DNA from: Geobacteraceae bacterium
GTDB taxonomy: Bacteria; Desulfobacterota; Desulfuromonadia; Geobacterales; Pseudopelobacteraceae
Reading direction: 5' to 3'
NCBI GenBank assembly: GCA_025355325.1
Contig: JANXZX010000109.1
Span: 1 to 36,468, forward strand
DNA: 36,468 nucleotides
The notes under the pieces were generated by a model. That model saw only the letters and a list, made by a program, of their open reading frames with translations. It was not told the origin of the DNA and did not search any database. Made by a program: the position numbers and the translations under genes. Positions 1,311 to 21,147 of this stretch are shown here, one piece after another. Each line of letters opens with the position of its first letter. Positions within the stretch are counted from its first letter, which is position 1.

Positions 1311-4300
1311 CTAGGGCGTGCCCTCAAAAACATTCCTCAGTGCTTCCCGTAACAGTTTAAAGTTGTATGGCTTGCCTACTAAACCAGCTATATCTTTTCG
1401 AGATATACGGGAGGTAATATCAGCATCACCAAAACCGCTGGAAATAATTATTGGAAGTGCCAGGTTACGTTGTTTCAGTTCACGGAATAGAGCATAACCA
1501 TCCATAATAGGCATGCCCATGTCTGTAAGCACTAAACATATTTCATTGGTGTTCATTTGATACTGTTCAAGTGCTTCTTTGCCATTCCTGGATTCAATAA
1601 CACGGAACCCCAATTCCTCTAACATAGCTTTCGCGACCTGAAGTATCTGCTCTTCATCTTCAACCAGCAAAATTGTGCCACTTCCATGCCATGTATCTTT
1701 TTTGCCCGTTAACTTCGCTGCTTCTTCCGGATTTGAACCGCTAATTTGTATAGGCAGGTAAACTTTAAAAGTTGTTCCTTTGCCCGGTTTGCTTGAGAGT
1801 TGTAACGCCCCACCTTGAGATGTGATGATGCCAAGAACTGCTGACAACCCCAGACCACGTCCCGTAAATTTGGTGGTGTAGAAAGGTTCAAAGATTCGAT
1901 TGTACGTTTCGTCGCTCATGCCACAGCCATTGTCAGTGACTTCCAGACAGGCATACCAACCTGTAGGGATAATCTTGCCGAGATAATCTTTTTCCGACTG
2001 TCCCGCTATGATTGATATCTTTGAAAGCGTGACTAAGACTTCGCCCTGAGCATCGCCGATTGCTTCTGCTCCATTGATGATTAGATTCATGGCTACCTGC
2101 CTGATTTGGCTGGCATCGGCTTTGATTGCAGGAATATCGGTAGCAATAGAAGGTGTTATCACCACATTCTGTTTGATGGTCGATTTCAGCATTTTTACCA
2201 TCTCTTCAACCAGTTCTCCGATGTTTACCTGTGCCTGAATAAATTGTGCCTTGCCGGCGTATGCCAGCATTTGGCGGCACAACTCGGCGGCACGGGAAAC
2301 TGCTTTTTCAATCTCAGGAATGTGGTCAGGTGCCTTATCGTAATCCATTTCCGTCAACGAACAATGCCCCATTATGATAGCCAGGATGTTGTTAAAGTCG
2401 TGAGCAATACCGCCAGCTAATACGCCAAGGCTCTCCAGTCGCTGGGTCTGCTGGAGTTGATTTTCCAGAATCTGATGTTCCTCTTCGGCTCGTTTTTTGT
2501 CAGTTATATCTTGTGACGTTCCGTATAGAACCATTTCCCCGGGTTCATTGCCGGCTTCGCAGAGTAGTGATTCAAGCAGCCAGCATACCTCTCCCGATTT
2601 AGAGATGATTCTGAATTCATTTTTACTTGTGTTTCCAGGGACAAGACTGAGCAACATGTCACCAATTCGTTGTTTGTCATCCGGATGTACTAAAGACAGC
2701 CAGCATCCATTTGCAAAAATTTCGTCCTGAGAATAGCCGGTAATTTTCTCTACGGCACCACCAACCCACTTAATCCGGTAAGGTTCACCGGAACTTCGCT
2801 GGCATCGGTGCACGAAATCGGAGGTAAGCTGTGAGAACTTGCGATAACGTTCTTCACTCTCAAGCAGAGCCAATTCCGATAGTTTGCTTTCAGTTACGTC
2901 AATCCAGAACCCGATAATTTCTGAGGGGTTACCTATTTCGTTGAATAGCAGTTGATTCTCATCATACATCCAACAGTAAGTACCATCCTGACGGAGGAAC
3001 CTATATTCATGGGAGTGACGGCCATGCGTTTTAAGTACAGTCAACTCTTTGAAGACTCGTTCCGAATCATCTGGATGGATATGGCGAGCCCAGAAGGATG
3101 CATCCGATGTAAAGTCACTCGCCTGATAGCCAGTTAGTTGTTGCACGTTTCCAGAGACAAAGGTTGCACCGTAATCTCCACTATAGTCACAAGTGTAAAT
3201 AACTGCCGGCGTGCTGGTGAGAAGGAAATCAAGTCGCTGTTGCCTCTTTTTAAGTTCTTCCTCCACCAATTTGCGGTCGGTAATGTCGTAACTGAGGACC
3301 GTAATTGAAACGACCTGTCCGTAGTCATCAAAAACTGGATTAAAATGTACCTGTATCCAGCGTTTTCCGGAAACCATGTTAAAGGTCATTTCGTAGGATG
3401 CAGGTTTCCCAGACCTCACTTCTTCAATATATGGCAATGCGAATTGATAGTTTTCTTCGCTCAGGACATCCTTTACATGACTTCCAACTATTTTATTCCG
3501 AGGTATTCCGAATGATTTTACATATTCATCATTTACGTACTGGTATTTCAACGTTTTAGCTTCGACAAGAGATACGAACCCAGGAACATTGGAAGCAAGG
3601 CTTGAGAAATTAGCATTACTTTCCTTAAGAGCCATTTCTGCCCGTTTACGCTCAGTGATTACTTCGGTGTAAATAATAATCCCGCCAATGGTCCCATCAG
3701 CTTCAAACCAGGGGCGGCACTCCCAGCGAGTCCAGTCTATTGAACCGTCTTCTCGTTCATACGAGTCTTCCTTTTCACTGATCACTTCTCCTGCAAGCAC
3801 CCGTTTATGTACATCCCGCCATTTCTGGGGCAGGTCGGGAAACACATCATAGTGATGTTTACCAATAATATCCGAATCTTTTACTTTATAATCATCAATA
3901 TACCTTTGGCTCACGTAGAGATACCGCATGTCCTTATCATGGACAGCGAGTGCGCTTTGGTTATAACGAATGATATAGCTCATCAACTCATGAGAATGTT
4001 TCAAATCGATTTCAGCCAGTTTACGTTCTGTGATGTCAGTTACTATACCCACATAACCGATAATCTCATTAGATTCTGAACTGAGGGGGGAAGCAACACC
4101 ACTGACCCAGTTCACTTTTCCGGATTGGGACAAAAACCGGTATTCCAAAGCAAAATCCCTATTTGTTCGGACAGATTCATTCCACGTTACATAAATATTT
4201 TCACGGTCTTCCGGATGAAGTGCCCTAGACCACCCTGTCCCCATTGCTTCATCGTTACTAAGCCCTGTCAACTCGCACCATTTCTTATTCACATAGATGC

Positions 4301-5630
4301 AATTACCAGCTGTATCGGTCTGATAAATGCCTACGGGGGAGCATTCGGCAAGTGATCGAAACAGTTCTTCACTTTTGCGGAGTGCTTCAACCGTTTGCTT
4401 GCGGCTGGTAATGTCGCTATGAACAGAAAGGAAGACCTTTCCGTATTCTATCGAATCAAATGCAGACACACTTGCGTAGCACCAAATATGAGTGCCATCT
4501 TTCTTGATATTTTCAACTTCACCATGCCATTCGCCGGACTTTGATAAGACCGACATTATGGTTTTTTTAGTCTCTACAGGTGTTTTTTGATTTGGAGCGT
4601 TAATTGCCGAGATATCTTTGCCAATAATTTCGCCTGGTTCATAGCCAAACATCTGTTCAAATTTTGAATTGGCAAACACAATAATGCCACTATCTGCCCG
4701 GACGAGATTTACCCCTTCCGATATATTTTTCATTATCTCGCTAAGGTAACGATTCGATTCTTCAAACTGTTTATGTTCAACGACACCAAAAGCCAAATCA
4801 GCCAACAGAGTAACAAGTTCTACGTCTCGCTGGTCATAATCAGTTGGTTTATTGCCTATGCCCAGAATAGCGACGATATTGCCTTTGCGGAAAACCGGCA
4901 CCACGAGTTCGCGGACAACTTCGGCGTGTCCATCCGGCATCCCCTTGCGATGTGCCAGAGAAGCATAGTCATTGTGGATCACAGGACGGCGTTCTCGAAC
5001 ACAATCAGCCCAGACACCAGCCTGGAAGATATGATAATGATTCCCTGTCCCTTCGGCTTTACAAAATTGGGACACCGTCCTGGTTGACCAGGAATGCAGA
5101 GACAGCATTTGCTGATCGGAATCCAGAAAATGGTAAAAGCCGATGCAACTTCCAGTCAGATTTTCTGCTTCATCAAGTGTTTCCCGCAACAGTTCATCCA
5201 TTGTATGGGTTAAGGAATATTCCATCAGTCGTAATCGAGCGTCTATAATTCTTCGAGTGCGTTTCTGTTCAGAAATGTCTCTGTTGAAGGAAATAAATGT
5301 GCCACCATTTGAAGCCGAATAGTTGGCGGAAACTTCAATATCTATTCCGGAGCCGTTTTTATGTCTGTGTTGAGTTTCAAATCGTAAAGAACCTTTCTGG
5401 ATGACCTCAGCTATGCGTTTAGATACATCTTCGGTGTTTTCGGTCACATCGACCTGAGAGATGTGCAAATCGACAAGTTCCTCTTGAGAGTACCCCATCA
5501 TCCTACAATAGCTGTCATTTACATCCAGAATACGACCGTTCATATCGACTACCAGAACACCATCCACAGTGTTGGCAATCAACGTTCGGAACTCATCGGA
5601 ATGTGTCTTTATCCAATGCCCATTAACCAT
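1311..5630 (-). CDS. Seven-PAS, one-GAF hybrid sensor histidine kinase
   Basis: 1439 residues. The start at 5630 (MVNGHWIK) is preferred over 5696 because GAGGATAATT precedes it. Domains in order: PAS (about 12-125), GAF (140-285), then PAS at 293-412, 420-537, 546-662, 671-785, 797-913 and 925-1044, most ending in a DIT/DVT linker motif. Next are a dimerisation helix with the phospho-accepting His in HDFNN (H1077), a HATPase domain (N box NLIINGAEAI near 1182, G1 DNGCGM, G2 GRGLGLS) and a C-terminal receiver (acidic pair near 1324, phospho-Asp D1370 in LTDMGMP, Lys K1420). No membrane span is seen, so it is probably a cytoplasmic, multi-input sensor. Phosphate would pass from H1077 to D1370 and perhaps to an unlinked partner. 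Ligands cannot be told. It is divergent from the hydrogenase-like sigma-54 regulator with a 232-base gap. Confidence 0.93.
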   Translation of the reverse strand: MVNGHWIKTHSDEFRTLIANTVDGVLVVDMNGRILDVNDSYCRMMGYSQEELVDLHISQVDVTENTEDVSKRIAEVIQKGSLRFETQHRHKNGSGIDIEVSANYSASNGGTFISFNRDISEQKRTRRIIDARLRLMEYSLTHTMDELLRETLDEAENLTGSCIGFYHFLDSDQQMLSLHSWSTRTVSQFCKAEGTGNHYHIFQAGVWADCVRERRPVIHNDYASLAHRKGMPDGHAEVVRELVVPVFRKGNIVAILGIGNKPTDYDQRDVELVTLLADLAFGVVEHKQFEESNRYLSEIMKNISEGVNLVRADSGIIVFANSKFEQMFGYEPGEIIGKDISAINAPNQKTPVETKKTIMSVLSKSGEWHGEVENIKKDGTHIWCYASVSAFDSIEYGKVFLSVHSDITSRKQTVEALRKSEELFRSLAECSPVGIYQTDTAGNCIYVNKKWCELTGLSNDEAMGTGWSRALHPEDRENIYVTWNESVRTNRDFALEYRFLSQSGKVNWVSGVASPLSSESNEIIGYVGIVTDITERKLAEIDLKHSHELMSYIIRYNQSALAVHDKDMRYLYVSQRYIDDYKVKDSDIIGKHHYDVFPDLPQKWRDVHKRVLAGEVISEKEDSYEREDGSIDWTRWECRPWFEADGTIGGIIIYTEVITERKRAEMALKESNANFSSLASNVPGFVSLVEAKTLKYQYVNDEYVKSFGIPRNKIVGSHVKDVLSEENYQFALPYIEEVRSGKPASYEMTFNMVSGKRWIQVHFNPVFDDYGQVVSITVLSYDITDRKLVEEELKKRQQRLDFLLTSTPAVIYTCDYSGDYGATFVSGNVQQLTGYQASDFTSDASFWARHIHPDDSERVFKELTVLKTHGRHSHEYRFLRQDGTYCWMYDENQLLFNEIGNPSEIIGFWIDVTESKLSELALLESEERYRKFSQLTSDFVHRCQRSSGEPYRIKWVGGAVEKITGYSQDEIFANGCWLSLVHPDDKQRIGDMLLSLVPGNTSKNEFRIISKSGEVCWLLESLLCEAGNEPGEMVLYGTSQDITDKKRAEEEHQILENQLQQTQRLESLGVLAGGIAHDFNNILAIIMGHCSLTEMDYDKAPDHIPEIEKAVSRAAELCRQMLAYAGKAQFIQAQVNIGELVEEMVKMLKSTIKQNVVITPSIATDIPAIKADASQIRQVAMNLIINGAEAIGDAQGEVLVTLSKISIIAGQSEKDYLGKIIPTGWYACLEVTDNGCGMSDETYNRIFEPFYTTKFTGRGLGLSAVLGIITSQGGALQLSSKPGKGTTFKVYLPIQISGSNPEEAAKLTGKKDTWHGSGTILLVEDEEQILQVAKAMLEELGFRVIESRNGKEALEQYQMNTNEICLVLTDMGMPIMDGYALFRELKQRNLALPIIISSGFGDADITSRISRKDIAGLVGKPYNFKLLREALRNVFEGTP

Positions 5631-5790
5631 AATTATCCTCGAATACATGAAAACTACGAATTTTGATAAATGTATCATATCAAGCTGATTTATCAAGTTT
5701 TACACTCGATTTTGTCACGATTTTAACAGTCGAAAACAAACGAGTCAGTGGTTATAAATTTCATATCAGAAAATGGAACATTTAGAGTTG

Positions 5791-5808
5791 TGTGCCAAAT
5801 ATTGCACA
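5791..5808. promoter_or_regulatory. Palindromic operator upstream of the sigma-54 regulator
   Basis: The 18-bp site TGTGCCA-AATA-TTGCACA lies 54 bases before the regulator start. It has the same half-sites and spacing as the perfect palindrome at 8221-8238, differing in one base of the right half. Likely use is binding of the regulator to its own promoter region; this is inference from position and repetition. Confidence 0.5.
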
Positions 5809-5862: not shown

Positions 5863-8151
5863 ATGGAACCTATCGTCACATATAAAGAGCGTTGCCGCCG
5901 CTGCTACTCCTGTGTGCGCAGCTGCCCGGTCAAGGCCATCAAGGTTGATGAGGGGTATGCACAGACCATGCATGATCGCTGTATCGGCTGCGGCAACTGC
6001 CTGAGCTGCCCTCAGCATGCCAAGGTAGTGGTTGATCGCATGGTGAGGACACAGGAAATGCTGGCGTCCGGCGCTCCTGTTGTTGCAGTCCTCGGCTGCT
6101 CGTTTCCGGCATTTTTTCATGAACTTCGCCCCGGCCAATTGGTAGCTGCTTTAAAAAGCCTCGGCTTCAGTGAAGTTCATGAGGGGGCGTACGGGGCGCG
6201 CATGATCGCCGACAGTTACCGCGAAGCGCTCCGCTCCTCTGAACAAACGCTTATTTCATCGCATTGTCCGGCAGTGGTTGACCTTATTGAACGGCATTAT
6301 CCGTCGCTGGTTCCCAATATTATACCGATTGTTTCTCCGATGATTGCTATTGGGCGCTTTATTAAAAGCATACTCGGTGAAGAGACCAAGGTGGTGTATG
6401 TCAGTACCTGCATTGCCGCCAAATTCGAAATCAAGGGTGAGGATACCGGCGCGATTGATGTTGTTCTTACTTATCAGGAGATCGATAAACTCTTCAAGAA
6501 CCGGGGAATCACTCCGTCCAGCCTGACTGAAATGCCATTCGACGGAGTTGACCCTGGTGACGGTCGCCTTTTTTCACTTACCGGCGGCTCGCTCAAAGTT
6601 TTTGATATTCACACTGATTTTCAGGACAATGAGACGATTTGCGCCGAAGGTGAGGCTCACACTATCGGAATTATTCGAGATCTGGCTTCCGGACGGATTT
6701 CGCCTGCTTTCGTAGACCTCCGATTCTGTGACGGTGGCTGCGTTGATGGTCCGACCCGTGATAAAGAGCTGCATTACTTTTTTAAGCGCAAACTGATTGT
6801 CTGCCACAACAGCGCTAAACCGCTCTATGACACTTCTGTCCACTACCGTTCAGCCTCAGTTATGCCCGATCTTGCCCGCTCTTATTCAAACAAGTCGGTG
6901 AGACTGCCGACTCCGGGCAAAGACGACGTCAAACGCATTCTTCATTCGACAAACAAATTTACCCAGGGTGACGAGCTGAACTGTCGTGCCTGCGGTTACG
7001 CCACGTGCCGGGAGCACGCGGTAGCCGTCTTTCAGGGACTTGCCGACATAGAAATGTGCCTTCCACGCAACCTACAGATGATTGAGGAAGAACGCGGACA
7101 TTTGATGCAAAAGTATGAGTTGGCGCAGCGTGAGCTGGACCGGCAAGCAGGTGATGACCTGATTGTCGGCAGTGACCCCGGCATCAGAGAGGTTATGGAG
7201 CTGATTCACAAGGTGGCTCCAACACCCATAACCGTGCTGATCAGAGGTGAAACTGGCACCGGCAAGGAATTGACCGCCCGGGCCATCCACCGCCAAAGCC
7301 AGCGCAACGATAAACCGCTCATGACCGTGAACTGTACGACGCTCACCGATTCTCTCCTTGAAAGTGAGCTGTTCGGCCACAAAAAGGGCTCTTTTACCGG
7401 CGCGATTGCCGACAAAAAGGGGCTGTTTGAGGCAGCCAACGGCGGAACAATTTTTCTGGATGAAATTGGTGACATTACCCCCAAGCTGCAAGCCGAACTG
7501 CTGCGGATACTGGATCTGGGCGAGGTGCGCCCCGTAGGTGGCGTTACTGCCAAAAAGGTGGATGTGCGCCTGATAGCGGCCACCAATAAGGATCTTGAGC
7601 AGGGTGTGCGAGAGGGGTGGTTTCGGGAGGATTTATATTATCGCCTGAATGTTTTCTTTATAGAACTTCCGCCATTGAGGGACCGGGCCGAATCCGTGCC
7701 GGAACTGGCCCGTCATTTTCTTGAAAAGGCCCGCAAGAAACTTAATAAAAATATTGCCGGCATCGAAGACCGGGCTGTTAAGGCCATGCAGCACTATCCT
7801 TGGCCGGGAAACATCCGCGAAATGCAAAATGTTATTGAGCGCTCGGCCGTTCTTGTTAAAGACGGAACTATCCGTTTGGAAAATCTGCCCACTATTTTTA
7901 CCGATACTTACGAATCGTGCCTCGATATTAATGTCAATCGCCGCCGGGTTTCATTCAAAGCGGAGCGCGAACTGCAGGTAGTTCGTACCGAAAAAAATAT
8001 GATCATGCGCTATCTTGACGAAACTGACGGAAACGTTGCAAAAGCGGCCCGCCTGGCAAATCTTCCCCGCCGAACACTTTATCGACTGCTTGAAAAGCAT
8101 GGCATAGAAGTTATCCGGCACTCAAAATCATTCTCAAACTTGCCCTCCTGA
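5863..8151 (+). CDS. Sigma-54 activator with [FeFe]-hydrogenase-like sensor domain
   Basis: 762 residues. A ferredoxin-like N-terminus has Cys 11, 14, 17, 21 and 40, 43, 46, 49 (second set one residue tighter than usual). Residues about 70-330 align with the H-cluster domain of [FeFe]-hydrogenases: SSHCPA (C135), VSTCIAAK (C183), LTGG (239-242) and FCDGGC (C289, C293), so all four ligands of the cubane part are kept, while the usual first Cys of TSCCP is His134. Residues 374-399 carry a C-x2-C-x4-C-x16-C Fe-S motif. The AAA+ domain has Walker A GETGTGKE (462-469), the sigma-54 contact loop GSFTGA (509-514) and Walker B FLDE; a Fis-type helix-turn-helix (KAARLANLPRRTLYRLL) ends the protein. 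The likely role is redox or H2-linked sensing that activates sigma-54 promoters. The ribosome site before 5863 is weak. Confidence 0.9.
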   Translation: MEPIVTYKERCRRCYSCVRSCPVKAIKVDEGYAQTMHDRCIGCGNCLSCPQHAKVVVDRMVRTQEMLASGAPVVAVLGCSFPAFFHELRPGQLVAALKSLGFSEVHEGAYGARMIADSYREALRSSEQTLISSHCPAVVDLIERHYPSLVPNIIPIVSPMIAIGRFIKSILGEETKVVYVSTCIAAKFEIKGEDTGAIDVVLTYQEIDKLFKNRGITPSSLTEMPFDGVDPGDGRLFSLTGGSLKVFDIHTDFQDNETICAEGEAHTIGIIRDLASGRISPAFVDLRFCDGGCVDGPTRDKELHYFFKRKLIVCHNSAKPLYDTSVHYRSASVMPDLARSYSNKSVRLPTPGKDDVKRILHSTNKFTQGDELNCRACGYATCREHAVAVFQGLADIEMCLPRNLQMIEEERGHLMQKYELAQRELDRQAGDDLIVGSDPGIREVMELIHKVAPTPITVLIRGETGTGKELTARAIHRQSQRNDKPLMTVNCTTLTDSLLESELFGHKKGSFTGAIADKKGLFEAANGGTIFLDEIGDITPKLQAELLRILDLGEVRPVGGVTAKKVDVRLIAATNKDLEQGVREGWFREDLYYRLNVFFIELPPLRDRAESVPELARHFLEKARKKLNKNIAGIEDRAVKAMQHYPWPGNIREMQNVIERSAVLVKDGTIRLENLPTIFTDTYESCLDINVNRRRVSFKAERELQVVRTEKNMIMRYLDETDGNVAKAARLANLPRRTLYRLLEKHGIEVIRHSKSFSNLPS

Positions 8152-8215: not shown

Positions 8216-8243
8216 ATACATGTGCCAGCCATGGCACATGTAT
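8216..8243. promoter_or_regulatory. Perfect palindrome, probable upstream activator sequence
   Basis: Two 12-bp arms, ATACATGTGCCA and TGGCACATGTAT, are separated by four bases (GCCA). The centre lies about 107 bp upstream of the -12 element of the sigma-54 promoter at 8323-8338, a normal distance for an enhancer site. The core TGTGCCA-N4-TGGCACA recurs before the neighbouring activator gene. No T-run follows, so a terminator role for that gene is less likely. Confidence 0.6.
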
Positions 8244-8322: not shown

Positions 8323-8338
8323 TGGCACGATATTGGCT
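8323..8338 (+). promoter_or_regulatory. Sigma-54 promoter of the second RHH gene
   Basis: TGGCACGATATTGGCT matches the sigma-54 consensus TGGCACG-N4-TTGCW at 11 of its 12 fixed positions, including the -24 GG and -12 GC at the correct spacing. Transcription would start near 8349, about 60 bases before the RHH start at 8411. The gene for a sigma-54 activator lies immediately upstream. Confidence 0.75.
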
Positions 8339-8410: not shown

Positions 8411-8596
8411 ATGGGAAGAATGAGAGAAAATCCACGCTACAATGTAATATCAATGAGGGTAAGTGACGAGGAGCGTGATCATCTGGAAAACCTGATGAAA
8501 ACCACTCACAAGAGTGTTTCTGACATCATGCGCGAGGCTATGGAATATTTTTCTGCTCACTACGAGAAGAACGATATCAACAGAAAAGCGGCGTAA
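8411..8596 (+). CDS. Ribbon-helix-helix small regulator under sigma-54 control
   Basis: 61 residues, preceded by AGGAGG eight bases from the start. The core VISMRVSDEERDHLENLM followed by KSVSDIMREAMEYF is an RHH fold with the same core as the protein at 275-544 (shared SDEE, KTT-KS-SDIMREA). Members bind DNA as dimers through the N-terminal strand. It is monocistronic: a sigma-54 promoter stands upstream and a long hairpin at 8607-8656 follows. Its position suggests it is the direct output of the hydrogenase-like sigma-54 activator, which would make a two-step regulatory relay. No toxin partner is adjacent, so an antitoxin role is not supported. Confidence 0.8.
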   Translation: MGRMRENPRYNVISMRVSDEERDHLENLMKTTHKSVSDIMREAMEYFSAHYEKNDINRKAA

Positions 8597-10253: not shown

Positions 10254-12725
<2,472 letters not shown>

Positions 12726-20428: not shown

Positions 20429-20728
20429 ATGGAAAAACGGCGACCACACTACGACCTTAAAGTAATCCTTGCTCAGATGATGTGTATTGAGAATATGAAT
20501 CTGACTACGACTGCTCAGCAGGGAATCAGGGTCGCCGGAATGACGCGAAATGAAGCACTTGAGGTGATAAATAAACTCTCAGCCACTAATTTTTATAAGA
20601 GCATGACAACACACCAGAGTCATCGGGTTTGGCAGGATGTGTATCATGCAAAATGGCGAGAAAAAATGCTCTATGTGAAGTTTCAACAAGCAGGCGAGTA
20701 TTTCGTAGTATCTTTCAAGGAGTTATAA
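20429..20728 (+). CDS. mqsR: MqsR-type mRNA interferase toxin
   Basis: 99 residues, the family's normal size. MqsR cuts mRNA mainly at GCU sites and stops growth when free of antitoxin. The start MEKRRPHYDL and the core FYKSMTTHQSHRVWQDVYHAKW, then VSFKEL at the end, closely follow E. coli MqsR (MEKRTPH..., FYKSMTT...WQDVY..., VSFKEK). Residues thought to act in catalysis in the family (Lys of the YKSMT segment, Tyr of QDVY, Arg/Lys region) are present. There is no Shine-Dalgarno sequence, and the promoter -10 box ends six bases before the ATG, so the message seems leaderless. mqsA follows after two bases, toxin before antitoxin as is usual for this system. Confidence 0.92.
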   Translation: MEKRRPHYDLKVILAQMMCIENMNLTTTAQQGIRVAGMTRNEALEVINKLSATNFYKSMTTHQSHRVWQDVYHAKWREKMLYVKFQQAGEYFVVSFKEL

Positions 20729-20730
20729 CC

Positions 20731-21147
20731 ATGAAATCAAAATGGAATAATAAACAATGCCCACTATGTTTAGAGGGCACACTGCATGAAGGAAGCCGGA
20801 CAAAAGCCTTGGAATATAGAGGTCATAAATACGAATCCACGATACATGGAGCTTTCTGCGATCATTGCCATGATGGTTTTCCCGTTTATGATGAACGCGA
20901 GGAGGTAGAGTGGGAAACATTCCGCGATAAGGTAGACGCAGAAGAAGTTGCAGAACTCGCCAGGATCAGGAAGAAGCTGAAACTCACCCAAAAGGAAGCA
21001 GCATTAATTACAGGCGGAGGACACAACGCTTTCTCACGGTATGAGCGAGGAGAGGCAAAGCCAATCCAGGCTGTACTTAATTTATTCAGGCTACTTGACC
21101 ATCATCCGGATCTCTTGAATGAGTTGAGAAATATAAGGACAGTTTAA
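20731..21147 (+). CDS. mqsA: MqsA-type antitoxin and autorepressor
   Basis: 138 residues. The start at 20731 has AAGGAG overlapping the mqsR stop; an earlier in-frame ATG at 20629 lies inside mqsR and is rejected. The N-terminal zinc domain carries CPLC (10-13) and CDHC, matching the four zinc ligands of MqsA, and binds the toxin. The C-terminal XRE-like helix-turn-helix (LTQKEAALITGGGHNAFSRYERG) matches the DNA-reading helix of E. coli MqsA almost residue for residue, ending LLDHHPDLLNELR. It should bind the palindrome at 20405-20417 and repress both genes. Confidence 0.93.
   Translation: MKSKWNNKQCPLCLEGTLHEGSRTKALEYRGHKYESTIHGAFCDHCHDGFPVYDEREEVEWETFRDKVDAEEVAELARIRKKLKLTQKEAALITGGGHNAFSRYERGEAKPIQAVLNLFRLLDHHPDLLNELRNIRTV

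What the first reader, a model, noticed from the sequence alone, without database searches (positions are those of the whole stretch)
5863..8151. Sigma-54 activator using a hydrogenase H-cluster-like domain as sensor
The protein keeps all four Cys that hold the cubane of the H-cluster (C135, C183, C289, C293), two ferredoxin clusters and a further Fe-S motif, joined to a complete sigma-54 AAA+ and Fis-type DNA-binding module. The proton-relay Cys of active hydrogenases is His134. Sensory [FeFe]-hydrogenase-like proteins with PAS or kinase outputs are known (HydS types), but direct fusion to a sigma-54 activator would put H2 or redox sensing and transcription in one chain. Whether this layout has been described I cannot check.
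Basis: partly seen in the sequence, partly recalled or inferred. Interest (0 to 1): 0.8.

Follow-up and report, generated by a model that had tools for sequence, protein, structure and literature searches.

The report
Hydrogenase-derived redox sensor controlling hgtR
A gene switch found across Geobacter and its relatives reuses a hydrogenase-shaped iron-sulfur protein that seems to have lost its hydrogen-splitting centre, and it probably turns on the neighbouring repressor that slows central metabolism when cells live on hydrogen.

Summary
In detail: 5863-8151 encodes a 762-aa chain with two ferredoxin motifs, a hydrogenase-like domain with all four cubane cysteines, a Cx2Cx4Cx16C Fe-S motif, a sigma-54 AAA+ domain and a Fis-type HTH. 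The reading as an H-cluster sensor needs changing. The cubane cysteines are invariant in 105 of 105 fusions compared, but the diiron-pocket positions K358 and P354 (CpI numbering), kept in 31 of 31 other homologues, are lost in all 105. The genome has no HydG and no HydF above cut-off. Of 174 class genomes with a typical fusion, 2 have HydG; counting diverged and split copies, 9 of 183. It is most likely a cubane-only redox or Fe-S sensor. Its target is visible: a small ribbon-helix-helix-like gene follows in 107 of 117 fusion genomes of the order, behind a sigma-54 promoter and a palindrome TGTGCCA-N4-TGGCACA, of which the genome has one exact copy. That gene is very probably hgtR, the H2-induced repressor; a paper noted an unnamed enhancer-binding protein upstream of it. 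The protein is a strong candidate for the missing activator of hgtR. Its signal is inferred, not shown.

The parts
5863..8151 (+). Fusion gene, 762 aa: Fer4 x2 / hydrogenase-like domain / Cx2Cx4Cx16C Fe-S / helical linker / sigma-54 AAA+ / Fis-type HTH
5893..6009 (+). Two [4Fe-4S] ferredoxin motifs, C11 C14 C17 C21 and C40 C43 C46 C49
   Evidence: Pfam; Cys in 52 of 52 fusions for the first motif, 51 of 52 for the second (one row has X)
6079..6753 (+). Hydrogenase large-subunit-like domain, residues 73-297, with cubane ligands C135, C183, C289, C293
6262..6267 (+). H134-C135 (L1): His at the proton-relay Cys position, then cubane Cys
   Evidence: His in 104 of 105 fusions
6403..6429 (+). L2 motif S181-T-C183-I-A-A186-K-F-E189: C kept, the P354 and K358 positions replaced
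6721..6741 (+). L3 motif R287-F-C289-D-G-G-C293: cubane Cys kept, Arg where catalytic-type enzymes have Met
6982..7059 (+). C-terminal Fe-S motif C374-x2-C377-x4-C382-x16-C399, same spacing as printed for TamHydS
   Evidence: PMC8163306 passages
7162..7662 (+). Sigma-54 AAA+ domain (Walker A GETGTGKE, loop GSFTGA, Walker B FLDE)
7987..8097 (+). Fis-type DNA-binding HTH
5791..5808 (.). Palindrome TGTGCCA-AATA-TTGCACA (13/14), 72 nt before the start codon: likely autoregulatory site
8216..8243 (.). Likely enhancer (UAS): 12-nt perfect inverted repeat around TGTGCCA-GCCA-TGGCACA (8221-8238), the only exact match in the 4.17 Mb genome
8323..8338 (+). Sigma-54-type -24/-12 promoter TGGCACGATATTGGCT (11 of 12 consensus letters), 93 nt after the UAS centre
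8411..8596 (+). 61-aa ribbon-helix-helix-like protein, inferred orthologue of HgtR (GSU3364)
   Evidence: PMC2725144 and PMC7894505 passages

Best explanation
The protein is the dedicated sigma-54 enhancer-binding protein of the next gene, an hgtR-like repressor. Its input half is a sensory [FeFe]-hydrogenase (group C/D-like) module that has lost the diiron subcluster and works as an all-[4Fe-4S] device: two N-terminal clusters, the former H-cluster cubane, and the C-terminal Cx2Cx4Cx16C cluster next to a helical linker into the AAA+ ring. When low-potential electrons are plentiful, as with H2 fed in by [NiFe] hydrogenases, or when cluster state changes, the module is proposed to release the AAA+ domain. 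The protein bound at TGTGCCA-N4-TGGCACA then opens the sigma-54 promoter of hgtR, and HgtR represses TCA-cycle and energy genes. Shown here by computation: domains, ligand conservation, pocket loss, HydG absence, conserved gene order, palindrome and promoter. Taken from print: H2 induces hgtR; HgtR represses gltA and others. Inferred: that the RHH gene is hgtR, that this protein binds the palindrome, and the redox signal with its sign.
For: Cubane Cys in 105 of 105 fusion rows while the K358 and P354 positions are changed in 105 of 105, against K and P in 31 of 31 other homologues. Own genome: one PF02906 protein, no HydG, no HydF over cut-off. Class sample of 244: HydG over cut-off in 25, typical fusion in 174, both in 2. 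Gene order: hgtR-like gene directly downstream, same strand, in 107 of 117 fusion genomes of the order. In 77 fusion-hgtR gaps (near-identical ones removed) the palindrome scores >=11/14 in 76 (shuffles 23 of 1540); its distance to the promoter is 92-96 nt in 44 and 102-108 nt in 32, about one helical turn apart, with one outlier at 133. In four genomes where hgtR is on another contig or more than 10 kb away, a site of 11-14/14 and a promoter lie before hgtR in 4 of 4; downstream of the fusion there is no site >=11 in the 4 loci with enough DNA, one of which (L118) has no known hgtR. Palindrome before the fusion itself in 48 of 48 (shuffles 17 of 960). Own genome: the only exact site is 8221; of 15 site loci examined (22 places with up to 2 mismatches counted; reversed-pattern control 10) only this one has a promoter match >=11 in range. 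Paralogous fusions are divergent from a [NiFe]-hydrogenase small-subunit gene with palindrome and promoter in 3 of 4 loci fetched. Print: an EBP gene lies upstream of GSU3364, which has a predicted RpoN promoter (PMC2725144); H2 induces HgtR, GSU3364 (PMC7894505).
Against: No expression, binding or spectroscopic data. The RHH protein could not be compared with GSU3364 itself. HydG and the fusion family do meet: besides the 2 genomes above, six f15 genomes with HydG carry diverged homologues and G261 (7% contamination, HydG with a stop) a shortened copy, so inclusively 9 of 183 (p 1.4e-5 instead of 3e-12, neither corrected for phylogeny). In 11 hgtR loci from genomes without a fusion-type match the promoter (score >=9) is kept in 11 of 11 and a palindrome >=11/14 at 103-105 nt in 5 of 11, so another activator can serve hgtR. 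The Desulfuromonadales-type fusions have no hgtR next to them. In TamHydS the C-terminal cluster did not respond to H2 (PMC13104023), against that cluster as switch. Co(II) also raises hgtR (PMC7726332). One proteome study did not detect HgtR (PMC7894505). HydE was not searched.
Confidence: 0.6

Rival explanations
1. True H2 sensor: the domain carries a complete H-cluster, binds H2 and signals directly to the AAA+ ring.
For: Fold, all four cubane ligands and the group C/D-like module are present; hgtR is H2-induced in print; TamHydS and TmHydS take up an H-cluster although C299, M353 and M497 are changed (PMC8163306, PMC10055695 passages). HydG is present in 9 of 183 class genomes with some member of the fusion family.
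Against: No HydG and no HydF over cut-off in this genome; K358 and P354 positions changed in 105 of 105 fusions though 31 of 31 other homologues keep them. The six f15 homologues, all from HydG-bearing genomes, have lost both positions too.
Confidence: 0.09
2. Fe-S integrity or metal/stress sensor: cluster loss, oxidation or metal replacement, not electron donor supply, switches the protein; H2 induction of hgtR is indirect.
For: Four cluster sites in one regulator; Co(II), but not Fe(II), raises hgtR in G. sulfurreducens (PMC7726332 passages).
Against: The paralogue beside a [NiFe] hydrogenase and the H2 induction of hgtR point to electron donor state. A plain Fe-S switch would not obviously need the conserved hydrogenase fold (argument, not data).
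Confidence: 0.25
3. Partner-gated sensor: the hydrogenase-like module docks ferredoxin or another redox protein and reports binding rather than its own redox state.
For: Two N-terminal ferredoxin motifs are conserved, and H106, E107 and H145 are invariant in 36 of 36 rows; whether they lie on the surface was not checked.
Against: No partner gene is consistently linked; neighbours are hgtR, a ptsP-like gene or a [NiFe] hydrogenase depending on clade.
Confidence: 0.06

Closest known systems
Group D / group C sensory [FeFe]-hydrogenases (TamHydS, TmHydS)
   Same: Same module order: two N-terminal [4Fe-4S] motifs, H-domain with four cubane Cys, C-terminal Cx2Cx4Cx16C cluster; C299 replaced (PMC8163306, PMC13104023 passages). 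Their sequences were not aligned here.
   Different: K358 and P354 positions (and mostly A-P) are lost, HydG is absent from the genome, and the output is a sigma-54 AAA+ activator instead of a PAS domain (group C) or none (group D).
Histidine kinases with the same Fe_hyd module (L185-L194, from MAGs labelled Cyanobacteria, Armatimonadetes, Marinimicrobia, Phycisphaerales and others)
   Same: Fer4, Fe_hyd_lg_C and FeS module 36-42% identical to ours; 9 of 10 shown as HisKA/HATPase kinases by Pfam, L187 is cut by the locus end; next to the fusion group in the tree.
   Different: Kinase output; they keep K358, P354 and the A-P motif in 10 of 10.
NtrC/NifA/NorR-type sigma-54 enhancer-binding proteins
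   Same: AAA+ with Walker motifs and GxFTGA loop, Fis-type HTH, a palindromic site about 100 nt upstream of a -24/-12 promoter.
   Different: No receiver, GAF or PAS input in Pfam; the input is a hydrogenase-derived Fe-S module.
HgtR (GSU3364) and the unnamed EBP upstream of it in G. sulfurreducens
   Same: Same arrangement: EBP gene, RpoN promoter, regulator gene (PMC2725144).
   Different: The passages seen do not say what that EBP senses or that it has a hydrogenase domain; GSU3363 occurs in no held paper.

Membership tests
Sensory [FeFe]-hydrogenase (group C/D) | Hydrogenase large-subunit fold with four cubane Cys | tested here: met
Sensory [FeFe]-hydrogenase (group C/D) | Two N-terminal [4Fe-4S] motifs and C-terminal Cx2Cx4Cx16C | tested here: met
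   spacing in PMC8163306
Sensory [FeFe]-hydrogenase (group C/D) | Residues that hold the diiron subcluster (K358, P354, A-P; roles recalled; PMC10055695 passages say H-bonding residues are conserved in sensory types) | tested here: not met
   0 of 105 fusions keep K358 or P354; 31 of 31 other homologues keep both
Sensory [FeFe]-hydrogenase (group C/D) | Maturases HydE, HydF, HydG in the genome | tested here: not met
   HydG absent, HydF none over cut-off; HydE not searched
Sensory [FeFe]-hydrogenase (group C/D) | H-cluster seen by FTIR/EPR, H2 turnover | not testable with these tools
   needs purified protein
Sigma-54 enhancer-binding protein | AAA+ sigma-54 domain with Walker A/B and GxFTGA loop, plus HTH | tested here: met
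   motifs read
Sigma-54 enhancer-binding protein | Enhancer site and -24/-12 promoter at a target | tested here: met
   (sequence only, no binding data)
HgtR (downstream gene) | Same position: regulator gene with RpoN promoter downstream of an EBP gene | tested here: met
   against PMC2725144
HgtR (downstream gene) | Sequence orthology to GSU3364 | not tested
   no G. sulfurreducens record was among the 80 loci returned
HgtR (downstream gene) | RHH DNA-binding fold (fold of HgtR recalled) | tested here: inconclusive
   RHH_1 20.1 bits against cut-off 20.5

The most novel reading that the evidence does not exclude
A whole bacterial class (Desulfuromonadia) has turned a hydrogen-sensing hydrogenase into an H-cluster-free iron-sulfur relay wired straight to sigma-54. 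It is the missing sensor that tells Geobacter whether electrons come from H2 or acetate, acting on hgtR in Geobacterales, on a ptsP-like gene in at least part of Desulfuromonadales, and on a [NiFe] hydrogenase through a paralogue.
Probability: 0.45. Interest if true: 0.85.

Novelty: new variant of a known kind. Interest (0 to 1): 0.74.

Why it matters
In print HgtR lowers citrate synthase and energy genes and is induced by H2, but the passages I could read do not say what switches hgtR on. This gives a candidate protein, its likely DNA site and a testable chemistry. It also shows a hydrogenase fold kept across a class apparently for its cubane alone, a natural control for what the diiron site adds in sensory hydrogenases.

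Tried and rejected
Direct H2 sensing through an intact H-cluster was judged unlikely because of pocket loss and missing maturases. A lone chimaera or assembly error was rejected because fusion-type matches occur in 117 of 141 genomes of the order. A further target in the own genome was sought: 22 places with up to 2 mismatches were counted (reversed-pattern control 10), 15 site loci were examined; only 8221 had a promoter match >=11/12 within 40-200 nt, and L108 had a 9/12 match at 193 nt inside an ORF; the places without a fetched locus were not examined. The one-mismatch site at 10468 lies inside a radical-SAM/DUF2344 gene with no promoter in range and is probably chance. An EBP with the same HTH was looked for in 26 genomes, most of them without fusion; apart from fusion copies only weak HTH matches came up (best 47% over 43 aa), so what drives hgtR there is open.

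Mended on re-check: the label 'PAS-type' for L080-L083 and L087 was dropped, since Pfam finds no output domain at E<=0.001 in L080; all six f15 homologues come from HydG-bearing genomes; the HydG/fusion count is now also given with diverged and split copies, and for that I lowered confidence from 0.62 to 0.60.

Rows dropped or special: the G046 copy (L028/L044) has an open frame of only 426 aa and was left out of the motif counts; exact duplicates were removed before and gaps sharing the last 150 nt and first 60 nt around the hgtR start; L053 is a shortened copy and scores lowest on the palindrome (10/14); L094 holds an X and was left out of the tool alignments. In one search genomes G016, G137 and G139 count as without fusion although split or contig-end pieces exist. 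The count of 174 of 244 was made by hand. The distance of about 125 nt at the [NiFe] genes was worked out by hand from offsets. Shuffles are first-order Markov, not exact dinucleotide shuffles.
Full report
What is there. The ORF at 5863-8151 is real and complete. Its domain order is Fer4 x2, Fe_hyd_lg_C (73-297), FeS PF04060 (372-401), Sigma54_activat (434-600), HTH_8 (709-745). Residues 1-425 are modelled with high confidence (mean pLDDT 91.3), and the 50 Foldseek matches shown are [FeFe]-hydrogenases or their HydA subunits (best E 7.2e-22, TMq 0.61-0.69).

How common it is. In the order, 131 of 141 genomes hold a PF02906 match; in 117 it is of the fusion type by score and frame length, and 13 of 141 have a catalytic-type match at E<=1.2e-92. 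In the class, a profile of the N-terminal module matches 193 of 244 genomes at E<=1e-40, 174 of them at E<=1e-160 (hand count). The window's own genome has this one PF02906 protein only. A maximum-likelihood tree of 81 rows puts the 55 sigma-54 fusion rows, six from family f15 included, in one group (support 100/99), next to a group of the kinase-type rows and the L080- and L223-type rows (97/86); rooting is by midpoint. One origin from a module with another output is therefore likely.

The H-cluster question. I compared 105 fusion rows with 31 other homologues: 10 out-of-class rows (9 shown by Pfam as histidine kinases, L187 cut), 5 of the L080 type (L080 has no output domain at E<=0.001), 3 of the L084 type (MCP signalling domain in L084) and 13 catalytic-type. 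Cubane ligands C135, C183, C289 and C293 are kept in 105 of 105 and 31 of 31. The position of CpI K358 is Lys in 31 of 31 others but Ala, Gly, Ser or Cys in 105 of 105 fusions; P354 is Pro in 31 of 31 but Ser, Thr, Ala or Gly in 105 of 105; position 79 (the Pro of the A-P motif) is Pro in 31 of 31 but Cys, Ser, Gly or Thr in 105 of 105. H134 stands at the proton-relay position in 104 of 105, and R287 at the M497 position in 105 of 105. CpI numbering was assigned by aligned motif; the roles of K358, P354 and A-P are recalled, while PMC10055695 (passages) says the residues that hold the [2Fe] cofactor by H-bonds are conserved in sensory types.

Maturases. There is no HydG and no HydF above cut-off (11 weak GTPase-like matches) in a 99.84% complete genome; HydE was not searched. 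The [2Fe] part needs HydE, HydF and HydG (PMC6212873, start of abstract in listing). In the class sample HydG is over cut-off in 25 of 244 genomes, and 2 of these (G120, G056) are among the 174 with a typical fusion (Fisher p 3e-12). Against this reading: six f15 genomes with HydG hold diverged fusion homologues and G261 holds HydG with a stop and a shortened fusion copy; counted inclusively 9 of 183 fusion-family genomes have HydG (p 1.4e-5). Neither test is corrected for phylogeny. In the order, 3 of 14 HydG genomes have the fusion. The six f15 homologues keep the Pro of A-P in 6 of 6 but have lost K358 and P354 in 6 of 6, so the pocket loss is older than the loss of HydG or independent of it. 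The simplest reading is that this domain holds a cubane but no diiron site.

The target. Directly downstream (8411-8596) is a 61-aa ribbon-helix-helix-like protein (RHH_1 just under cut-off). It follows the fusion on the same strand in 107 of 117 genomes; of the ten others seven have the two genes on different contigs, one (G115) lies just inside the lower distance limit, and two (G106, G121) lie 12-14 kb apart. Between the genes lie a perfect 12-nt inverted repeat (8216-8243) and a sigma-54-type promoter (8323-8338). In 77 fusion-hgtR gaps the best match to TGTGCCANNNNTGGCACA scores >=11 of 14 in 76 (23 of 1540 shuffles do), and its distance to the promoter is 92-96 nt in 44 and 102-108 nt in 32, about one helical turn apart. 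In the own genome the only exact site is this one, and the two one-mismatch sites are 5791-5808 and 10468-10485, both in this window. The same palindrome lies before the fusion gene at >=11 in 48 of 48 Geobacterales loci, 5 of 5 paralogue rows (two rows are one genome) and 18 of 19 Desulfuromonadales-type loci. In L208, L209, L210 and L212, where hgtR is away from the fusion, a site (11, 13, 12, 14 of 14) and a promoter lie before hgtR. As a counter-control, 11 hgtR loci from genomes without a fusion-type match keep the promoter in 11 of 11 and a site >=11 in 5 of 11.

Other clades as tests. The Desulfuromonadales-type fusions have no hgtR next to them. A site >=11 follows the fusion in 19 of 19 loci examined, with a promoter match >=10 in 17 of 19. 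A ptsP-like gene is visible downstream in 9 of 20 loci (one checked by Pfam); in the others I saw other or no clear genes. Second copies fetched from four Geobacterales genomes form their own branch; in three of the four the divergent neighbour is a [NiFe]-hydrogenase small subunit (Pfam on one) with a sigma-54-type promoter and a 12/14 palindrome about 125 nt upstream of it; in the fourth (L090) no such ORF was called. The own genome has [NiFe]-hydrogenase large-subunit matches (10, 9 over cut-off).

Link to known biology. Seen as passages: an EBP gene lies upstream of GSU3364, which has a predicted RpoN promoter (PMC2725144); H2 induces HgtR (GSU3364), which lowers citrate synthase, though HgtR was not detected in that proteome (PMC7894505); HgtR lowers gltA, atpG and nuoA and is raised by Co(II) (PMC7726332). 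The primary paper (Ueki and Lovley 2010) is not held; I know it only through these papers and recall. Ten searches of the held library were run. In the listings and passages I saw there was no description of this layout or of what the EBP senses; the Pelobacter carbinolicus, G. bemidjiensis and six-genome Geobacter papers, searched by terms, do not mention it in the passages shown. Most subscription papers are outside this library.

Mechanism. Shown by sequence: four Fe-S sites coupled to a sigma-54 activator, one clear target promoter, a self-site, a changed diiron pocket and no HydG. Inferred: electrons enter by the ferredoxin domains, pass the old cubane, and alter the C-terminal cluster and the helical linker (residues 400-424 are one helix in the model), which frees the AAA+ ring. 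In TamHydS the C-terminal cluster does not change redox state with H2 (PMC13104023, abstract and passages), so the switch may lie at the cubane or in conformation instead. The alternative that the clusters report damage or metal stress is kept open, since Co(II) raises hgtR.

Noticed in passing
L215-L220 (family f15 genomes): Homologues of the fusion; the two read in full (L215, L216) lack the GxFTGA loop needed to touch sigma-54, and a G[AS]F[TS]G search found none in all six; 5 of 6 keep a TGTGGCA-N4-TGGCACA site upstream. Perhaps turned into plain repressors.
   Followed up: partly
L091, L092, L093, L162: Paralogous fusion divergent from a [NiFe]-hydrogenase small-subunit gene with its own palindrome and sigma-54-type promoter.
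   Followed up: partly
L163-L184: In Desulfuromonadales-type loci the fusion often precedes a ptsP-like (EI-Ntr) gene with a sigma-54-type promoter instead of hgtR (9 of 20 loci).
   Followed up: partly
L195-L205: hgtR with sigma-54-type promoter but no fusion-type match in the genome; 5 of 11 keep the palindrome. The activator there is unknown.
   Followed up: partly
window 10468-10485: One-mismatch copy of the palindrome inside the radical-SAM/DUF2344 gene; probably chance.
   Followed up: partly
window 20429-21147: MqsA antitoxin-family gene (Pfam) preceded by an overlapping 99-aa ORF that looks like MqsR: an apparent toxin-antitoxin pair (MqsR not tested).
   Followed up: no
window 1311-5696 (-): Large PAS/GAF hybrid histidine kinase with receiver domain, divergent from the fusion gene.
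   Followed up: no
window 8411-8593 and elsewhere in G000: The own genome has 8 matches to the hgtR-like RHH protein at E<=0.001, so there may be a small family of such regulators.
   Followed up: no
L174: A fusion with about 51% identity in a MAG labelled Chloroflexi; probably a binning or naming error.
   Followed up: no
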